This document shows, one piece after another, positions 1 to 7,463 of a stretch of 40,603 bases of DNA (within the stretch, counting starts at the first letter, position 1; each line of letters begins with the position of its first letter). The position numbers and the translations under genes were made by a program. The DNA is from Chitinophagaceae bacterium (GTDB lineage Bacteria > Bacteroidota > Bacteroidia > Chitinophagales > Chitinophagaceae): NCBI GenBank assembly GCA_019638595.1, contig JAHBTJ010000037.1:1-40603 (forward strand), read 5' to 3'. The notes under the pieces were generated by a model. It was not told the origin of the DNA and did no database searches. It worked only from the letters and a program-made list of their open reading frames with translations.

Positions 1-1
1 A

Positions 2-48
2 CCGGCGCGTGTCTCACGCGCCGGAAAGTAAAACCTTTAAGTTGACGC
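2..48. repeat. GTCTC-loop hairpin module, copy 1
   Basis: Bases 2-10 and 16-24 form a perfect 9-bp inverted repeat around the five-base loop GTCTC. It is followed 14 bases later by AAGTTGAC (39-46). The same arrangement, with a different stem sequence but the same GTCTC loop and the same CCTT(T)AAGTTGAC block, occurs at 3411-3448. Keeping the loop and the downstream block while the stem changes by compensating bases points to a structured RNA or a mobile-element end rather than chance. The element touches the left window edge, so its full extent is unknown. Confidence 0.6.
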
Positions 49-300
49 AGTGGTGTCTCACCGACCGGATTACCGCCTATGAAGCGAAAATTTGAACTCT
101 TTTCACCGAAGGTAAATACACCCGAAAAGGTGAAGCCTGGAAAAAGAAAACAGAGTTAACTATATTTGTGAACAGAGAAATGCAACCACGCAGCAGTTGT
201 ATGCGTTTTGAGGATTGCATTTCAATTACCTCCGATTACACACTGGCATTTTTTTCGTACCGGCGATACCTGGCATAATACACTTTAAAACCACTTTACT
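49..300. other. Gene-free leader of the first gene
   Basis: No gene is seen here. A third, weaker GTCTC-loop hairpin lies at 52-62 (GGT/ACC stem), and TTCACC (102-107) can pair with GGTGAA (129-134). TATATTTG at 161-168 fits the Bacteroidota -7 consensus TAnnTTTG but has no recognisable -33 partner, so it is only a weak promoter candidate for the gene starting at 301. Confidence 0.35.
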
Positions 301-2457
301 ATGATCCGTTTCATTGTTGCATTATTTGGCGGCTTTATCGTTCTTTTACCGGGCAAAAATGCAGAAGGACAAACTACGTGGCCATTAAAAATTTCCGGCA
401 CTGATGGCGCTGTAATATCGGTTTATGAACCCCAGCCGGAAAAATATGCCGGTAATACAATATCCGCCAGGGCGGCGGTATCTGTACGCAAAAAAAATAC
501 GGATGAACCCGTTTTTGGCGTAATGTGGTTCAACGCCGGACTGCAGCCCGATAACGAAAATAAAACGCTGCTGGTTAAAACGGCTACAGTATCAAAGTCA
601 AAATTTTCTGATGGAGATGAAGACAACCAGGTGCTTTTAAAAACAGTGGTTGAAAAAGAAGTGCCGGGTATGCATATTCAATTGAACGCGGCACGCCTGA
701 ACGAAATGATAGCCCAGGAAAAAACCGATATGGAGAGTGGTATAAAAACAGATCCCCCGCTTATTTTGTACAGGAACAGGCCCACCACGTTAATTGTGCT
801 GGACGGAGAGCCCATTGAGCAGGAAGATCAGGATATTAAGATGACAAGAGTAGTTAACTCTCCTTACCTGATCATAAAAAACCCCAACGATGGAAAATAT
901 TACCTGTACGGCGGAAGCTTCTGGTATAGCTCAACACAGGTAAAAACAGGTTGGACAAATGTAAAAACACTTCCTTCTGCAATTAAAGCGGTGGATGCCG
1001 CGATAAAAGAAGAAGAAAAAAAAGATACAACAGACAGGAATGAAGCGTCAGCCGGCTTTACTACAGCAACAGATATCGTAGTAAGTACTGTGCCTGCCGA
1101 ACTTATACAAACAGAAGGCAACCCCACTTACAAAGCAGTAGAAGGTTCTACTTTATTGTATGTAGACAATTCGCTCGATGAAATTTTTAAGGATGTAGCA
1201 TCACAGAAAAATTATATACTCATTTCCGGCAGGTGGTATAGCAGTGCAAATATTGAAGGCCCGTGGGAGTATGTACCGTCCGATGCATTGCCCGCGGCTT
1301 TCGCATCTATACCCAAAGGCTCTGAAAAAGACGGAGTACTGGCAAGTGTTGCGGGTACCGATGCGGCGGAAGAAGCGATCATGGACGCCCATCTTCCCCA
1401 AACAGCAAAAGTGGATCGCAGCACGGCTACCTGCACAGTAACCTACGATGGCGAGCCCAGGTTTGCGCCGATACAAAATACGAACCTTGCGCTCGCAGAA
1501 AACAGTAACATTACCGTAATGCTTGCTCCCAATAATCAATATTATGCTTTGGAGAATGGCATCTGGTTTAAAAGCGCTCAGGCTAACGGTCCATGGGAAG
1601 TAGCCAATGAAAGACCGTCTGATGTAGAGAAGATCCCTGCAAGCAGCTCTGCCTATAATACCAAATATGTGTATATATATGAAGCAACACCTCAATACGT
1701 ATATGTAGGTTATACTCCGGGATATTTGGGAAGCTATTATTACCGCCATACAATTGTATGGGGCACGGGCTGGCATTATCATCCCTGGTATGGCCACTGG
1801 TATTACCCAAGGCCTTATACCTGGGGATTCGGGATGCATTATAATCCCTGGACAGGCTGGAACATCAGCTTCGGGTTAAGCTTTAATTACGGCTGGTTTC
1901 ACTTCCATCACTACCATGGATACGGTTACGGCTGGTTTGGTCCTCCTATGTTCCGCCCGCCGTACAGGCCATGGGGTTGGAATGGCGGGTATTACGGACG
2001 ACCCCATCGCCCGGCCCCGGGCCGTCCACCGCACCGCCCTAATGTAACAGCTAACCGGCCGCCTAACTGGAATACCCGCCCGGCAGTAGCGGCCCGCCCT
2101 GCCATACAAAACAATATTTACCAAAACAGGAAGGCCGTAGTTACAAGAGATAAGGTACAACGACCTGTTGTCCGTCCAGCCAATCCTTCAACGAGACCAA
2201 CCAACCCGTCCACAAGACCGGGTGTTACACCCAGACCGACCAATCCTGGTGTGCGGCCAACCCAACCGGGTACTACAAGACCCACACAGCCATCCGCACG
2301 ACCTGCCGCTCCCAAACCCTCCACAAAACCAGCCACGCGACCGTCAACACGGCCTGCTGCACGACCAGCTCCCAAACCCGCAACCCGGCCTGCCGTTAAA
2401 CCGGCGCAGCCATCAAACAGAACACCGGCCAAGCCTCCGGTTCGAAGAAAAGAATAA
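301..2457 (+). CDS. Secreted repeat protein with aromatic/His-rich and Pro/Arg-rich tail
   Basis: This 718-residue protein begins with a signal peptide (about residues 1-24). Residues about 190-465 hold three copies, spaced about 105-110 residues, of a unit in which a (K/Q)xYxLxxGxWY/F core is followed by GPW or a variant and then a short Pro-containing segment; the cores start near residues 197, 301 and 411. Residues about 465-560 are very rich in Tyr, Trp, His and Gly. Residues about 570-718 are a low-complexity Pro/Arg/Thr/Ala tail with repeated RPTxP and TRPxxRPA units, ending in charged residues. The repeat units recall poorly characterised secreted proteins of Bacteroidota and Proteobacteria, but I cannot name a function. 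The basic tail could bind cell-wall polymers or nucleic acid; that is inference. The lipoprotein gene starts 51 bases downstream. Confidence 0.85.
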   Translation: MIRFIVALFGGFIVLLPGKNAEGQTTWPLKISGTDGAVISVYEPQPEKYAGNTISARAAVSVRKKNTDEPVFGVMWFNAGLQPDNENKTLLVKTATVSKSKFSDGDEDNQVLLKTVVEKEVPGMHIQLNAARLNEMIAQEKTDMESGIKTDPPLILYRNRPTTLIVLDGEPIEQEDQDIKMTRVVNSPYLIIKNPNDGKYYLYGGSFWYSSTQVKTGWTNVKTLPSAIKAVDAAIKEEEKKDTTDRNEASAGFTTATDIVVSTVPAELIQTEGNPTYKAVEGSTLLYVDNSLDEIFKDVASQKNYILISGRWYSSANIEGPWEYVPSDALPAAFASIPKGSEKDGVLASVAGTDAAEEAIMDAHLPQTAKVDRSTATCTVTYDGEPRFAPIQNTNLALAENSNITVMLAPNNQYYALENGIWFKSAQANGPWEVANERPSDVEKIPASSSAYNTKYVYIYEATPQYVYVGYTPGYLGSYYYRHTIVWGTGWHYHPWYGHWYYPRPYTWGFGMHYNPWTGWNISFGLSFNYGWFHFHHYHGYGYGWFGPPMFRPPYRPWGWNGGYYGRPHRPAPGRPPHRPNVTANRPPNWNTRPAVAARPAIQNNIYQNRKAVVTRDKVQRPVVRPANPSTRPTNPSTRPGVTPRPTNPGVRPTQPGTTRPTQPSARPAAPKPSTKPATRPSTRPAARPAPKPATRPAVKPAQPSNRTPAKPPVRRKE

Positions 2458-2508
2458 CAATACAGCATTAGCAGAAACAGCTAATCATACAACATAAATA
2501 ATGATCGC

Positions 2509-3261
2509 ATGAAAACCATTCTTATTGCCACTGGCTTTGCAGTATTCCTTATTTCCTGCAGCAATACCAAAACCACTCAACAAAATCAACAAAGTGAGGT
2601 TGTTGTTGATAGTGGGCATAACTCCAGAAATGCTCTGGATTGGAACGGTACTTATACCGGTGTTGTACTATCAGGTTCAGATAGCACGCAGATAGTCGTA
2701 CAATTGCACACCAACAACACTTATGCTTCCGAGAAATCCATAAAAGACAAGGGGCGTCTTCAGCAGGATAGCGGAACCATTGTTTGGAATACCAACGGCA
2801 GCGCCATTACTATAGGAGACGCAACGTATAAGGTAGCAGAAAACGCGCTTGTAGCGCTTAATGCTGATGGCAATCCTACATCTATAAGATTAGAAAAATT
2901 AACAGATGAATTACCGGAAAAATACTGGAAGCTGATTGAACTCAATGGCAAACCCGTAATAACTACAGGGCAGCAGAAAAAGGAGACACATATTATTTTT
3001 AAATCCTTTAACAACCGGTTTAACGGCAATGGCGGCTGCAATAATTTTTCAGGAACTTATACTTTACTTCCCGGTAACAGAATTAAACTCTCGCAGGTGA
3101 TATCTACACAAATGGCATGCGCAGATGGCATGGAAACCGAGACCATGTTTTTCGAAGTTTTGAACAGGATAGATAACTATATCATTACGGGAGATACCTT
3201 GAGTGTAAGCAAAGCAAGAACCGCCCCGCTGGCAAAATTCCAGGCTGTATACCTGCGGTAG
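2509..3261 (+). CDS. NlpE-like / META (HslJ-like) domain lipoprotein
   Basis: The protein has 250 residues. The N-terminus ends in a lipobox (LISC, Cys17), so a lipid-anchored outer-membrane or periplasmic protein is expected. Residues about 43-125 match the NlpE-like pattern (DWNGTYTGVV start and beta-rich body). Residues about 135-245 are a META/HslJ domain, shown by YWKLIELNG, the NGNGGCNNFSGTY core with its Cys, and the MACADGMETE motif. META domains are tied to stress and antibiotic tolerance in Proteobacteria, and NlpE to envelope copper and surface sensing; the role here is not known. It probably shares a transcript with the gene before it. No Shine-Dalgarno sequence is visible before the ATG. 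Confidence 0.88.
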   Translation: MKTILIATGFAVFLISCSNTKTTQQNQQSEVVVDSGHNSRNALDWNGTYTGVVLSGSDSTQIVVQLHTNNTYASEKSIKDKGRLQQDSGTIVWNTNGSAITIGDATYKVAENALVALNADGNPTSIRLEKLTDELPEKYWKLIELNGKPVITTGQQKKETHIIFKSFNNRFNGNGGCNNFSGTYTLLPGNRIKLSQVISTQMACADGMETETMFFEVLNRIDNYIITGDTLSVSKARTAPLAKFQAVYLR

Positions 3262-3410
3262 TTTTGAAGCATGCTTATTACTATTTTACGGGGCATTAAC
3301 TATTATAAAAATATGCCGGCGAGTGTATAACCAGCACCGGAAACAGGGACGCTAAAAAATATACCTGAATATCGACATCCTGCTATTTTCTATTTTTTGT
3401 TCGATCGCCC

Positions 3411-3570
3411 TGGTACGTGTCTCACGTACCAACACCTTAAGTTGACACCTATGCCCGCCGGGATCTTCACAGCCAGGCAACTGTGTAAAGAGTGGGACCC
3501 CGGCGAACCACTCAGCACCAAGGTCTCATAGCTGGCCGCAATAGCCTTAATGAAGACCCTGGTGCGACAG
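3411..3570. ncRNA. Candidate structured RNA joined to GTCTC-loop hairpin (copy 2)
   Basis: The 355-base gap between convergent genes (3262-3616) holds no obvious gene but a dense set of pairings on the plus strand. TGGTACGT/ACGTACCA (3411-3418/3424-3431) closes a GTCTC loop. CGCCGGG/CCCGGCG (3456-3462/3499-3505) encloses CACAG/CTGTG (3468-3472/3481-3485). GCACCA/TGGTGC (3515-3520/3560-3565) encloses GGTCT/AGACC (3522-3526/3554-3558) and a small GGC/GCC hairpin. TATTTTTTG at 3391-3399 could be a promoter. The layout (several stem-loops, each with an internal or apical loop) recalls IS110-family bridge RNAs, but there is no transposase nearby. A 26-codon reading frame (3451-3531) overlaps it. 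The part before 3411 shows nothing I recognise. Confidence 0.5.
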
Positions 3571-3616
3571 AAATAAGTATTTGATATTCAGTTGTAACTT
3601 CTTTTATCACTCCTCT

Positions 3617-6067
3617 TTACCTGGCCGCGCTGATACGTTCCGCTTTTCCAACAGTTTTGAACTCAATTTTCACCGCCGGTGATTGTTCGCCGGATACTAT
3701 ACCATCTATCAAAATCTTGTTGGCTCCCGCAGCTAGAATAGGCAACTGTTGCACAGCGCTTTCATTGATCTTATGCCATTCATGGTCAAACAATATCACC
3801 TGTTTTCCGTCACATACCAGCCGCTGTCCTTTTGTAACAGTAAACGGTATTTCCAGTTTGGCATAATTGTTTATTTCGATAGAAGGTTGTTCCCATGAAG
3901 CAGATACAGATTCGCCGGTAATATGAGCAACAAACTGCAATGGCTGTTCGATAAAGGGATTATTAAAATCGTGTTCAGAATAAACAGGTTCCCCCGGCTG
4001 CCTGATCTTTTTCTGGTGTTGTATTATGGTATTGTTAACCGGAAAAAGATCCCAGTTGCGATCATCTACTTTGGAGAGATGAAATTCCTTATTGATATCC
4101 TGAAGCGTTTCCTTTTGTGTGGACTTAAACGCTCCCGACAATCTCGCCTTCTCCCATTCCGCAATGGTTTGAAGCAATAACTCCATCCGGCCATTCTTCT
4201 TCAATTCAACTAACGATGCAGACAAACCAAAGCCTGCGTCGAAGCCTGCCGCCCTGGCCAGCAGCCACTCAATATCTTCCAATGTGGTTGTGCTTCCTAA
4301 CTGGAACCATCCCAGCATACGGGGCATGAGATTCCTGTAATAATAGTCCTGGTTCCTCAGCCTGTATTGCGTCTGGCTTTCCCGGAAGCCGGCATACCAG
4401 GGTTCACCCCAATTCATCCTCGTGAAGGTATGCCAGAAATAATGACCTGGTCCGCTGGCATCATTGATCACGTGCCCTTTTAATTCAGGCTTGAGCAGGT
4501 CATACCATTTTTTTACAAACAACTGTGTAGCATATTGTCCCATACCGGTTGACCAGCTTCCTTCCAGCCCGTCAAACGATATTTGTTTTAATCCTGTTTG
4601 ATTGAAGAGCCTGGCAATATTGGCCGCCATCTCGTCCTGCAACTCCATATTAGGTAAAAAAACCTTATACCCGTGATCCATCAGCTTCGCAATAGTATCA
4701 CCCTGTTGATGATTTTGTGCTTTCGTTCCAAATGCGCCACGTACACAATCGAGCAATTGCCAGGGCGCTGATGCCGACACATCACGATAGCGGATCAGCT
4801 CACTGCCAAGCATAACTGTTTTAAGGTTGTTATTTTTCATCTGGTTGAAAAAATCTGGCGAGGCTATTGAAACCGTAGTCATTTTATCATCAATAGCAGC
4901 GGCGAGAACAGATGAGCCAACTTTCGCCAATCTTTTGTCCGGCACAGGTGTAACAAAGGGATCGTTGGTTGTGATGAATGACGATAAAGTATGCACCCCC
5001 AGGTCTACGTTTCGTTTAGCGGCAATATCAACACAACGTTTCATACTTTGCCAGTTATCAGGGAACTGTTTTTTGTTGAGCCCGAAATGCCCCCATGTTT
5101 CAAAAGGACCCGGGTGGTATAAATATTTTAGTCCGGCTTTTTGCGTAAGATCAAGCGCTTCTTCTATCGTTTGCTCACCAAAGCCCATGATCAGGTAAGA
5201 GGATGTTGCCAGCGGTGATCTTTTAGCCCATACTCCGTTAATGACAGGATGCGGAAGATTTTCCTGCAGCTCGATCTTTTCGATCACAGAAAGCAATTGT
5301 TCCTGCGGCGCCCCCCACAAAGCAATCTTAGAGCCAGTCACACCGCCATCCTGCGGATACGCGGGAACTACATATTTGTCATGCCCCCAGTTTTCAACAA
5401 TGCGTTGTTTATAACGGTTACGGGTATATGCCTGAATAATGCTTCCAAAACCTGTAAGCTTTGCTGTTTGCCCACGGTATAACACCTTATGTTCAGGAGA
5501 AATATCTTTTAAGCCGCTGCTTTCGGAAAAGATATCAAAAGAAGGGTCTATATCATTGTCATGTGTAGGTGCACCACCCAGTGTTTTTATGTTGAGTGCC
5601 TGCAAACCAATGCCAAAATGATCATCCCACACGGTTCCCACCGTTTCTCCGATTTGCTTACTGATGATAATCGGATACGGTCCCCACATGATATATTCTA
5701 CCGACTCGTTACCCTTTACCTTAACAAGCTCCAATGTGATATAATCCGGCTTTTCCTGTACTTTGATACTGACCTCACCCGTCCAGCCGGGATAAGTCAA
5801 TACAATCGTTTTAGAAGCATTTTGCCAACGCAGCTTTTCAGGATTCAACAGTTTTCCTGCAGTAAACACAGATAACAGAGGGGCAGGTTGTGTGGGAGCG
5901 AGATATTCTTTGCCTGCTTTGTCTTTAAGGCTAACGATATCGCCCTTCGCGCTTAATGCAATATTAAGTTGAGTAGTTTTGAAGTTTACCTGCGCAAACA
6001 CATTTCCAAAATAAACAACAAATGCAATGATCAAAAGGCTATGGGGTAGAATCATTTTTTTTGACAT
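3617..6067 (-). CDS. Secreted putative glycoside hydrolase, TIM-barrel-like, family unassigned
   Basis: The product has 816 residues with a signal peptide cut near residue 26. An N-terminal beta-rich part (about 27-250) precedes a region (about 275-600) that reads like a (beta/alpha)8 barrel: alternating beta strands and helices, a YHPGPFETWGHFG segment near 317-329, and ISFDGLEGSW near 496-505 with Asp499 and Glu502 as candidate catalytic acids. A beta-rich C-terminal part (about 690-816) ends the protein. It is the last gene of locus 1, 34 bases after the GH29 fucosidase, so a role in breaking down the same glycan is likely. I cannot assign it to a numbered GH family. Alternatives are a catalytically inactive glycan-binding barrel or a polysaccharide lyase. 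Confidence 0.75.
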   Translation of the reverse strand: MSKKMILPHSLLIIAFVVYFGNVFAQVNFKTTQLNIALSAKGDIVSLKDKAGKEYLAPTQPAPLLSVFTAGKLLNPEKLRWQNASKTIVLTYPGWTGEVSIKVQEKPDYITLELVKVKGNESVEYIMWGPYPIIISKQIGETVGTVWDDHFGIGLQALNIKTLGGAPTHDNDIDPSFDIFSESSGLKDISPEHKVLYRGQTAKLTGFGSIIQAYTRNRYKQRIVENWGHDKYVVPAYPQDGGVTGSKIALWGAPQEQLLSVIEKIELQENLPHPVINGVWAKRSPLATSSYLIMGFGEQTIEEALDLTQKAGLKYLYHPGPFETWGHFGLNKKQFPDNWQSMKRCVDIAAKRNVDLGVHTLSSFITTNDPFVTPVPDKRLAKVGSSVLAAAIDDKMTTVSIASPDFFNQMKNNNLKTVMLGSELIRYRDVSASAPWQLLDCVRGAFGTKAQNHQQGDTIAKLMDHGYKVFLPNMELQDEMAANIARLFNQTGLKQISFDGLEGSWSTGMGQYATQLFVKKWYDLLKPELKGHVINDASGPGHYFWHTFTRMNWGEPWYAGFRESQTQYRLRNQDYYYRNLMPRMLGWFQLGSTTTLEDIEWLLARAAGFDAGFGLSASLVELKKNGRMELLLQTIAEWEKARLSGAFKSTQKETLQDINKEFHLSKVDDRNWDLFPVNNTIIQHQKKIRQPGEPVYSEHDFNNPFIEQPLQFVAHITGESVSASWEQPSIEINNYAKLEIPFTVTKGQRLVCDGKQVILFDHEWHKINESAVQQLPILAAGANKILIDGIVSGEQSPAVKIEFKTVGKAERISAAR

Positions 6068-6101
6068 GGTAACATAATTGAAGCCGGAGTATCAATAAAA
6101 T

Positions 6102-7463
6102 TTAAAACAATGCAAAGGTTTTGATCTGGGGAACAGAAGATGACTTAACAATACGCAAACGCAGTTGCTGTGCCTGCAGATCCCGCACTTCGTGAATGCG
6201 CTTATGCCCTACCGATATACCCTCGGCTACCGGTTTCCAGGCTCCATCTACCAGGGCTTCTACCACGTATTGTCGCACGCGCTCTCCTTTGGCGATGTCT
6301 TCCTGTATCACAATAAAATGCAGCGCTTTATCAGCGCTCGCTTTTAATATAATTTCGTTTCCTGAACCAGATGCGCTTGCAACAGGTTTTTCAAACCGTC
6401 GTGCAAGCAGGTCACCGAACTCCTTTAAACGGGCTGCATCTTCTTCAGGAACTTTACCACTGGTATCTACCACTATGCCGATCATCATGTTGGCGTTGCG
6501 GCCTACACTGGTATTATAGTTAGTAAGCAACTGGTCTACAGATAACATGCCCTGCCCTTCCGCCTTCCAGAACCAGCCGCCCTGCCAGCCTGTACGTAAA
6601 GGAAAATCGGCTTCGCCAGGGCACCATATTTTTCCTTCGGGATCGCCATTCATATGTTCCACCTTTACCGTACCCGCTGCAGAACTTGTAGTATCCGAAC
6701 GACCCCAGTTGGGATAGGGCGCTACTCCTTCTTCATTACCCACCCACCGGATCAGGTTTTTGGCATCCGACGGACCCTGGAATATAATGGCATCAGGCTG
6801 TAATTTTTTTAATAACGGAGCCAGGTCCGGACCACCTTCCTTTACCGGCAATACGCCACCATCAAACCATATCTCAAATAGTTTTCCATAATTGTTCCAC
6901 AATTCCGTAAGCTGCTGCACTACTATTTTGTTATAGCCTTCCTGTGTAAAGGGACTGCCCGGCTGCACCTTACCCGGGTTATCAACATAACAGTAACCAT
7001 TAGCCGAAGCACTGGCGTAAATGCCGGGCTTCAATCCATACTTTTTACACGAGGCAATGAATTCCGCCACTATATCTCCTTTCCCGTTTTTCCAGGGCGC
7101 ATATTTTACACTGTAGTTGTGCGCTTTGGTAGGCCACAAGCTAAACCCTGAGCAATGTTTGGCAACAAGCACCGCGTATTTTGCACCAGCCGCCTTAGCA
7201 GCCAGTATCCACTGATCTGTATTCAACTGAGACGGATTGAAAACAGAAGCAGGAGGGTGTGTGCCCCATTTTCGCCAATTATAATCGGGCACATAGTTCA
7301 CCAGGTCAAAGTGAAACATGGCGCCGATCTCTGTCTGAGCCCATTCAACCTGCGCTTTGTTGGGTATTACTTCTTCACCCTTTCCTTTTTGGGAAAATGC
7401 AAACAAGGGACTGATAAAATACAACGCAAAAGAAACAACGATCCGGAACGTACTATTTTTCAT
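6102..7463 (-). CDS. GH29 alpha-L-fucosidase, secreted
   Basis: The 453-residue enzyme has a signal peptide (about 1-24) and a GH29 catalytic domain that would release L-fucose from glycans in the periplasm or at the surface. Visible landmarks are GAMFHFD near residue 47, the substrate-binding KHCSGFSLWPT motif (102-112) and EIWFDGG, whose Asp201 matches the GH29 nucleophile. The KHCxGF form and the WNNYGKLFEIWFDGG context resemble the narrow-specificity subgroup (alpha-1,3/1,4-fucosidases), but the subgroup is inferred. A beta-rich C-terminal domain (about 365-453) follows. The 172-base gap upstream contains a terminator-like hairpin, so transcription may come from partial read-through or a local promoter. 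Confidence 0.93.
   Translation of the reverse strand: MKNSTFRIVVSFALYFISPLFAFSQKGKGEEVIPNKAQVEWAQTEIGAMFHFDLVNYVPDYNWRKWGTHPPASVFNPSQLNTDQWILAAKAAGAKYAVLVAKHCSGFSLWPTKAHNYSVKYAPWKNGKGDIVAEFIASCKKYGLKPGIYASASANGYCYVDNPGKVQPGSPFTQEGYNKIVVQQLTELWNNYGKLFEIWFDGGVLPVKEGGPDLAPLLKKLQPDAIIFQGPSDAKNLIRWVGNEEGVAPYPNWGRSDTTSSAAGTVKVEHMNGDPEGKIWCPGEADFPLRTGWQGGWFWKAEGQGMLSVDQLLTNYNTSVGRNANMMIGIVVDTSGKVPEEDAARLKEFGDLLARRFEKPVASASGSGNEIILKASADKALHFIVIQEDIAKGERVRQYVVEALVDGAWKPVAEGISVGHKRIHEVRDLQAQQLRLRIVKSSSVPQIKTFALF

What the first reader, a model, noticed from the sequence alone, without database searches (positions are those of the whole stretch)
3411..3570. Densely paired candidate RNA in a gene-free gap
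Three separate stem-loop systems occupy 160 bases with about 30 paired positions, several of them perfect, preceded by TATTTTTTG. Two stems have internal loops flanked by further helices, as in guide-like RNAs such as the IS110 bridge RNA, yet no transposase is close by. It could be a solitary regulatory RNA, a stranded mobile-element RNA, or a new family.
Basis: partly seen in the sequence, partly recalled or inferred. Interest (0 to 1): 0.72.

Follow-up and report, generated by a model that had tools for sequence, protein, structure and literature searches.

The report
Mobile-DNA hairpin repeats, not guide RNA
The hairpins in this gap are two scattered families of short palindromic DNA repeats whose relatives flank small "REP-associated" transposase genes, a known kind of bacterial repeat found here in a little-studied group, rather than a new guide RNA.

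Summary
The three hairpins are real and more stable than chance: z -3.7 on the + strand, -5.3 on the - strand. They are not one RNA but two dispersed repeats side by side. Element A (3402-3453) is a perfect palindrome plus tail; 45 bases of it recur exactly on contig C13, and 9 of 12 genomes of the genus carry A-type palindromes. Element B (3454-3568, - strand) is a pair of inverted hairpins; 8 of 12 genomes match it. Both show compensating base changes. In two relatives B hairpins flank a REP-associated tyrosine transposase (RAYT) gene; A-type palindromes flank a second RAYT clade. Of 26 RAYTs in a tree, the 11 with a recognised palindrome type fall into four clades, one per type. In B's wider RAYT clade, 68 of 73 Bacteroidota loci share a repeat between the two flanks (mispaired controls 9-12 of 71-73). 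The genome has no IS110 transposase match; Rfam gives nothing. So these are stranded REP/BIME-like mobile DNA: a new member of a known kind, without the canonical GTAG foot. Side result: some B copies bound gene segments as near-identical direct repeats.

The parts
3402..3453 (+). Element A: head (C)GATCGCCC, perfect palindrome TGGTACGTG-TCT-CACGTACCA (3411-3431), tail CTTAAGTTGACACCTATG (3436-3453)
   Evidence: 3402-3446 is 100% identical to G000:C13:15895-15939; partial copies elsewhere in the genome; 12 palindromes at <=1 mismatch in G000, 9 of 12 genus genomes positive; compensating changes; related palindromes flank a RAYT clade
3454..3568 (-). Element B: two inverted hairpins (BIME/REPIN-like), H1 + H2
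   Evidence: blastn copies in own genome; H1 model: 13 matches in G000, 8 of 12 genus genomes at E<=0.1; B hairpins flank RAYT genes in G147 and G155
3515..3568 (-). Hairpin H1 of element B: foot GTC, 15-bp stem with an extrahelical T, partly conserved 20-nt inner part
   Evidence: model R1, 74 bits; 61 distinct rows, 93.6% of cells paired, 7 of 15 pairs with changes on both sides
3456..3505 (+). Hairpin H2 of element B (CGCCGGG...CCCGGCG), the inverted partner of H1
   Evidence: fold; alignment with L002, L003, L021; H2-type copies beside RAYT in L102 and L103
4..22 (+). Second A-type palindrome (GGCGCGTGTCTCACGCGCC), at the contig start
   Evidence: pattern search: 4 matches (two palindromes, each on both strands) against 0.14 expected; conserved in G150 at the colinear place
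2509..3261 (+). Flanking gene with META and NlpE domains
   Evidence: Pfam PF03724, PF04170
3617..6067 (-). Flanking gene, 816 aa, no Pfam or NCBIfam match at E<=0.01; its 3' end is 48 bp from element B
   Evidence: relatives at 85, 84, 75 and 69% identity in G150, G123, G028, G147

Best explanation
The region is a small island of two repetitive extragenic palindromes (REPs) that belong to two lineages of RAYT transposase, HUH/tyrosine enzymes related to IS200/IS605 TnpA. Element A is a REP of one lineage. Element B is an inverted pair of longer, bulged hairpins (a BIME- or REPIN-like unit) of another. Inferred mechanism, by analogy with E. coli TnpA-REP: when the strand is single-stranded during replication, the palindrome folds, the RAYT reads the hairpin and the few bases at its foot, cleaves with its tyrosine, and the element is copied or moved in trans to a new intergenic site. 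Shown here: the repeats, their dispersal, hairpin conservation, the pairing of repeat type with RAYT clade in relatives, and presence/absence between relatives. Inferred: that the RAYT cleaves and moves them, and that the window copies are now non-autonomous relics.
For: Dispersed copies in own genome and genus. In G147, H1 hairpins at 1334-1388 and 2084-2139 of L102 lie on either side of the RAYT gene at 1501-2061; in G155 an 89%-identical RAYT has an H2 hairpin upstream and B units downstream. That protein passes NCBIfam NF047646 REP_Tyr_transpos (85.7 bits, cut-off 80); the profile of its clade finds solved TnpA-REP 4er8 as its only hit, weakly (23.1 bits, E 0.00055). A-type palindromes flank RAYTs L109 and L130 on both sides (2 mismatches each), L115 (3 and 4 mismatches), and L124 on one side (4), with half a palindrome on the other. 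Four palindrome types fall on four RAYT clades: 11 labelled rows among 26, three label changes, the least possible, 0 of 200 shuffles as low. In 68 of 73 loci of B's RAYT clade the flanks share a repeat, against 9/71, 9/73, 12/73 with mispaired flanks; 48 of the 68 repeats hold a perfect stem of 8 bp or more, 1.7 expected from shuffles. Compensating changes: A fully Watson-Crick at three variable pairs in 34 of 50, re-paired mean 15.1, maximum 25; H1 7 of 15 pairs. Presence/absence: G150 is colinear with window 2-3311 and 3599-6856 but has 2243 bp of other sequence and no A or B between; G123 has B without A.
Against: Neither element has the canonical GT[AG]G foot. The window's genome has no intact close relative of either cognate RAYT: the nearest B-side homologue is split between two frames on C8 without B beside it, and the A-side lineage appears only as a 24-codon match on C9. 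Copy number and enzyme do not go together neatly: G150 has many B copies but only RAYTs of about 32% identity or less, G149 has 11 and no RAYT match (a fragmented assembly), while G148 and G153 have 44-45%-identical RAYTs and no B. The RAYT-flanking palindromes of the A clade read GGTTCG/CGAACC, GGCTCG/CGAGCC and the like, not exactly the window's GGTACG/CGTACC. The B clade in the tree is only two rows (34 of 500 label shuffles as low). The locus is not a clean empty site, because a gene differs there too, and a 53-bp B-like fragment lies elsewhere in the same G150 stretch (L224:518-570). Many copies are near relatives, so the covariation counts are not independent events.
Confidence: 0.88

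Rival explanations
1. A transcribed structured RNA (3'-UTR stabiliser, terminator-like element, or solitary regulatory RNA) for which the hairpins are kept at the RNA level.
For: Strong folding, best on the - strand, which is the coding strand of the adjacent gene 3617-6067; convergent placement; compensating changes. B orientation goes with local gene strand over 20 kb (p 0.007, 40 regions).
Against: No Rfam match; no promoter-like or terminator-like site inside the elements. Of 45 B copies with an ORF on both sides (7 more at edges), >H1> 17, >H1< 10, <H1> 9, <H1< 9, so convergent and divergent places are about equal (ORFs chosen by length, not by a gene caller). A and B recur separately. 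REPs can be co-opted as RNA, so this could be a secondary role.
Confidence: 0.07
2. IS110/IS1111 bridge-RNA remnant.
For: Only the general look: hairpins with internal loops in a gap.
Against: No match to PF01548 in the genome (0 of 1 at E<=0.001; the same search rings in 4 of 14 control genomes); relatives' copies sit beside RAYTs.
Confidence: 0.01
3. Recombination sites of an integron-type cassette system (attC-like), with the RAYT merely one of the cassettes.
For: 38 of 39 neighbouring B copies within 20 kb have the same orientation. Of 11 neighbouring pairs under 2.5 kb, 4 are 85-96% identical where at most 1.2% of distant pairs in the same genome are as alike. B pairs bound a ParE-like toxin, a PIN/DUF2281 (VapBC-like) pair, RAYT and others. 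The G154 PIN/DUF2281 segment is 91% identical to G000 and G150 over 677 bp, and that stretch stops within about 20 bp of the two B copies.
Against: No integron integrase over the curated cut-off in 12 of 12 genomes. B ends read GTCGCACC/GGTGC without GTTRRRY/RYYYAAC core sites (alignment A7; core consensus recalled). 68 of 73 RAYT loci across Bacteroidota share a repeat between their flanks, so the RAYT link is not peculiar to one array. Orientation goes with gene strand (p 0.007), weakly with GC skew (p 0.12). No clean empty cassette site was found.
Confidence: 0.03

Closest known systems
REPs / BIMEs / REPINs with RAYT (TnpA-REP), as in E. coli and Pseudomonas (PMC6006769: sections 12 and 13 and passages seen; PMC3733652: abstract, sections 6 and 16 and passages seen)
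   Same: Short imperfect palindromes, dispersed between genes, often as inverted pairs, each family tied to a RAYT gene that it flanks; several families with several RAYTs in one genome
   Different: No GT[AG]G foot; B hairpins are long (about 55 nt, 15-bp stem with extrahelical T and a partly conserved 20-nt inner part)
TnpA-Y1 subclass 2.6 (Bertels group 5) of Bacteroidetes with 'atypical secondary structures' (PMC6006769)
   Same: Same phylum, atypical flanking structures without GT[AG]G, copies elsewhere in the genome. A-clade proteins carry NHIH or NHLH and WQ (read by eye), like the subclass
   Different: B-clade proteins have NHMH, 'SFD' where the subclass has WQ, and YIHYNP; assignment to 2.6 was not tested because the paper's supplementary alignments could not be read here
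CGTC-tagged REPs (PMC3733652 section 6)
   Same: Short palindromes in several phyla including Bacteroidetes
   Different: CGTC elements have a CGTC tag, 8-9 bp stems, 4-5 nt loops and no associated transposase; A has a 9-bp stem but a 3-nt loop and no such tag, B has a 15-bp stem and long loop, and both are linked to RAYTs
TIRYT/TIRtrons (PMC3733652 section 16)
   Same: RAYT-like genes flanked by inverted repeats other than GTAG REPs, some of them dispersed
   Different: Their shared motif is given as GGGGWSAS; B has GGGGTCTT; their sequences are in figures not held, so no comparison was possible
IS110 bridge RNA
   Same: Hairpins with internal loops
   Different: No IS110 match in the genome; relatives lie beside RAYTs

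Membership tests
RAYT-associated REP/BIME | Dispersed palindrome in many, mostly intergenic copies | tested here: met
   intergenic placement seen for the B copies
RAYT-associated REP/BIME | Flanks a RAYT gene | tested here: met
   B: (two genomes); A-type: (four loci in three genomes). Met in relatives, not in the window's own genome
RAYT-associated REP/BIME | Cognate enzyme is a HUH/tyrosine RAYT | tested here: met
   NF047646 over cut-off; NHMH and YIHYNP in P0001; Pfam Y1_Tnp 22.8 bits is just under its cut-off of 23
RAYT-associated REP/BIME | 5' GT[AG]G foot (canonical REP) | tested here: not met
   H1 begins GTC or TTC, A head CGCC; in the wider clade often (G)TCC(C) by eye
RAYT-associated REP/BIME | Intact cognate RAYT in the same genome | tested here: not met
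   Only a two-frame homologue (C8) and a 24-codon match (C9); intact RAYTs of other clades on C14 and C19
RAYT-associated REP/BIME | Binding, cleavage and movement by the RAYT | not testable with these tools
   Only presence/absence between genomes
CGTC REP | CGTC tag, 8-9 bp stem, 4-5 nt loop, no transposase | tested here: not met
   against the description
IS110 bridge RNA | IS110 (DEDD) transposase in the genome | tested here: not met
Integron attC | IntI integrase | tested here: not met
   0 of 12 genomes over the TIGR02249 cut-off
Known structured RNA | Match to an Rfam family | tested here: not met

The most novel reading that the evidence does not exclude
Element B is the end-sequence of a cassette-like mobile system: a RAYT, or recombination at the hairpins, mobilises [gene + B] units, among them toxin-antitoxin modules, and strings them in same-orientation arrays in this genus. 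B would then be a functional counterpart of integron attC sites built from REP hairpins, and the window copy an empty landing site.
Probability: 0.12. Interest if true: 0.72.

Novelty: new member of a known kind. Interest (0 to 1): 0.36.

Why it matters
It removes a candidate 'new guide RNA' and replaces it with defined REP/RAYT pairs in Bacteroidota, where the survey I could read reports only atypical, hand-found structures (PMC6006769, sections 12-13). It gives matched RAYT-repeat pairs without the GTAG foot, which makes it testable how such RAYTs recognise DNA. The near-identical B copies around single genes raise the question whether REPs can carry passengers.

Tried and rejected
Rejected: IS110 bridge RNA; known RNA family; promoter/terminator inside the elements; integron; plasmid or phage element (blastn at E<=1e-5, no match; records very near the window's genome may be left out). 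The palindromes beside the RAYT-like gene on C19 (L033) are of another type, so that gene is not the source of A or B. The IS200-like genes L029-L032 have no convincing A or B at their ends (blastn hits only at E above 0.5; pattern hits with 3-4 mismatches in L029 and L032).

Led nowhere: 3'-end preference as proof of an RNA role; replichore explanation of uniform orientation by GC skew (p 0.12); a clean empty site for the window copy or for the PIN/DUF2281 segment.

Dropped rows and limits: one search kept the best 80 of 166 relatives; searches used 75 of those 80 (L189, L199, L204, L206, L222 not entered), of which 73 had at least 150 bases on both sides; 5 of 73 shared nothing, and of the 68 shared repeats 20 lack a perfect 8-bp stem, among them G147's own, whose stem has a bulge. 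One search used 26 of 29 RAYT frames (three partial or frame-broken left out); 15 of the 26 have no palindrome label. One search had 7 of 52 copies at an edge. One search used 121 of the matches printed, which scored at most 150 candidates per genome and did not list every match. One search used 56 of 62 hits. One search looked at 33 chosen loci, and its automatic stem choice missed the shared hairpin in several. Alignment A6 was fitted to the model's own structure and includes some H2-type rows, so its pair counts lean towards that structure.

Full report
What is there. Window 3262-3616 is a gap between two convergent genes. Folding confirms three hairpins, more stable than shuffles on both strands and best on the - strand. 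Searching the window's own genome (7.06 Mb, 52 contigs; the window is the whole of contig C31) with 3330-3620 showed at once that the region is repetitive: 3402-3446 is present without a mismatch on C13, and 3454-3568 recurs at 81% on C15 and C25 and in pieces elsewhere. The two halves occur independently.

Element A. A degenerate pattern of the palindrome, free to be non-complementary at three positions on each arm, found 50 matches at up to one mismatch in 9 of 12 genomes of the genus, and none for the reversed control pattern. In 34 of 50 all three variable positions pair by Watson-Crick rules, against 15.1 on average and 25 at most in 2000 re-pairings (many copies are near relatives). Several copies come as inverted pairs around GGGCGATCGCCC or close variants, like REP doublets. 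One more copy is at window 4-22.

Element B. Nine copies gave model R1 of hairpin H1. It finds 13 matches in the own genome and matches in 8 of 12 genus genomes, 33 in each of three of them (a candidate cap applies). In 61 distinct rows 93.6% of pair cells are standard and 7 of 15 pairs show double changes, against a shuffled mean of 2.7 reached in 3 of 500 shuffles at the observed value (the alignment was fitted to the model). In 44 copies aligned without structure the extrahelical T is invariant and several positions of the 20-nt inner part nearly so. H2 is the inverted partner, so B is a two-hairpin unit of about 115 bases.

What it belongs to. In G147, whose contig C1 has the length and places of NZ_VOHQ01000001 of Agriterribacter humi (so the genus is most likely Agriterribacter), B hairpins sit on both sides of a 187-aa gene. 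That protein passes NCBIfam's curated RAYT cut-off and has NHMH and YIHYNP motifs; Pfam's Y1_Tnp is just missed (22.8 against 23 bits). An 89% identical gene in G155 has an H2 hairpin upstream and, downstream, two full B units and a weaker third. A-type palindromes flank RAYTs of a different clade in G028, G148 and G155. In a tree of 26 RAYTs the 11 rows with a recognised palindrome fall on four clades, one per type (A 4 rows, TCGGAGAC type 3, B 2, GTGTGTCTTCACACAC type 2): three changes in all, the least possible, 0 of 200 shuffles as low, though the two two-row groups are weak alone. The labels of the TCGGAGAC and GTGTGTCTTCACACAC types rest on patterns with up to 3 mismatches and on reading by eye. 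Outside the genus, the single genome scan kept the best 80 of 166 relatives of the B-type RAYT. In 68 of 73 usable loci the two flanks share a repeat, 50 inverted and 18 direct, against 9 of 71, 9 of 73 and 12 of 73 when flanks of different loci are paired. In 48 of the 68 the repeat holds a perfect stem of 8 bp or more, against 1.7 expected from shuffled letters. Many read like GTCTC...GGGAC hairpins (by eye). The H1 model itself matches firmly (E below 1e-8) only the G147 and G155 loci among the 80, so the wider clade has related but different hairpins. The protein profile finds TnpA-REP 4er8 as its one hit among solved structures, weakly.

State of the window copy. The own genome holds RAYT genes of other clades (C14, C19), a two-frame homologue of the B side on C8, a partial gene on C3 and a 24-codon match to the A side on C9. 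So A and B here look like relics without their enzyme. In G150 the neighbourhood is colinear up to 3311 and from 3599, with 2243 bases of other sequence and neither repeat between; a 53-bp B-like piece lies outside the colinear part. In G123 the alignment runs from 3454, so B is shared and A is not. The repeats are therefore variable between sister species, but the site also differs in gene content. Copy number and enzyme are not tightly linked: G150 has many B copies and only distant RAYTs, G148 and G153 have moderately close RAYTs and no B.

How it most likely works. By established knowledge of TnpA-REP, the substrate is the single-stranded hairpin with its foot; the enzyme cuts with a tyrosine in trans. 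I infer the same here. The foot is not GT[AG]G but, in the wider clade, often (G)TCC(C) (by eye). PMC6006769 (sections 12 and 13 and passages seen) reports Bacteroidetes subclass 2.6 genes flanked by atypical structures without GT[AG]G, copies of which occur elsewhere in the genome. That is the closest description I found. Searches for RAYT/REP papers with Bacteroidetes, toxin-antitoxin, Pedobacter, Chitinophagaceae and Agriterribacter listed no paper whose title or abstract start describes A or B. They cover open-licence papers only; the two papers opened were read in part.

Unexpected. B copies close together share orientation (38 of 39 adjacent pairs within 20 kb). Eleven neighbouring pairs under 2.5 kb were measured. 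Two in G154 are 96% identical, with none of 165 distant pairs in that genome as high. One in G147 is 85% and one 81%, with none of 86 distant pairs as high. One in G154 is 88%, reached by 1.2% of distant pairs. The other six are reached by 7% to 84% of distant pairs. The alike pairs bound a ParE-like toxin (21.2 bits, just under Pfam's cut-off of 23) and proteins that by eye look like a lipoprotein, an IS200-like transposase and a thioredoxin-like protein. The pair around the PIN/DUF2281 genes is less striking (85%, reached by 7.3%). G000 and G150 carry the same PIN/DUF2281 segment (91%) without B, and the homology ends close to the B copies. Strand-biased insertion with local duplication explains this as well; a passenger system is the bolder reading. 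No integron integrase passes its cut-off in any of the 12 genomes.

Verdict. A real and well-conserved feature, but of a known kind: RAYT-associated palindromic DNA repeats. The guide-RNA reading is not supported.

Noticed in passing
L005, L006, L007 (G000 C17 and C7); L033:1000-1185: A roughly 150-bp element with ends like CATAAGTGTTCGAA/TTCGAACGTTTATG sits inside B copies, flanked by GTCTCACYC on both sides like a target duplication, and also lies beside the C19 RAYT (by eye).
   Followed up: partly
L095:7512-8386, L096:7268-8236, L263:9133-10027, L268:9987-10825, L273:8638-10033: Single genes or modules lie between direct B copies: PIN/DUF2281 pair, ParE-like toxin, and by eye an IS200-like transposase, a lipoprotein and a thioredoxin-like protein; four of these five pairs are unusually alike.
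   Followed up: partly
G147:C1:33975-78186, G154:C25:89989-226959: B copies cluster with uniform orientation; orientation agrees with local gene strand (p 0.007) more than with GC skew (p 0.12).
   Followed up: partly
window 3436-3453; G000 C17, C30, C51, C49, C23, C41, C10, C3: The tail TTAAGTTGACRCCTATG(CCCG) matches places in the genome where no A palindrome was matched, so it may be a third dispersed repeat.
   Followed up: no
window 1-22; G000 C5:4-22, C25:85-196, C37:1-46: Several contigs of this assembly begin at or close to A or B copies, as expected if these repeats break the assembly.
   Followed up: no
L033 (G000:C19) and L229 (G000:C3): Two more RAYT-type palindrome families: TCCGAAGTCGGAGACTTCGGA beside the C19 RAYT, and GTTGGGTG-type palindromes around a partial RAYT gene on C3.
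   Followed up: partly
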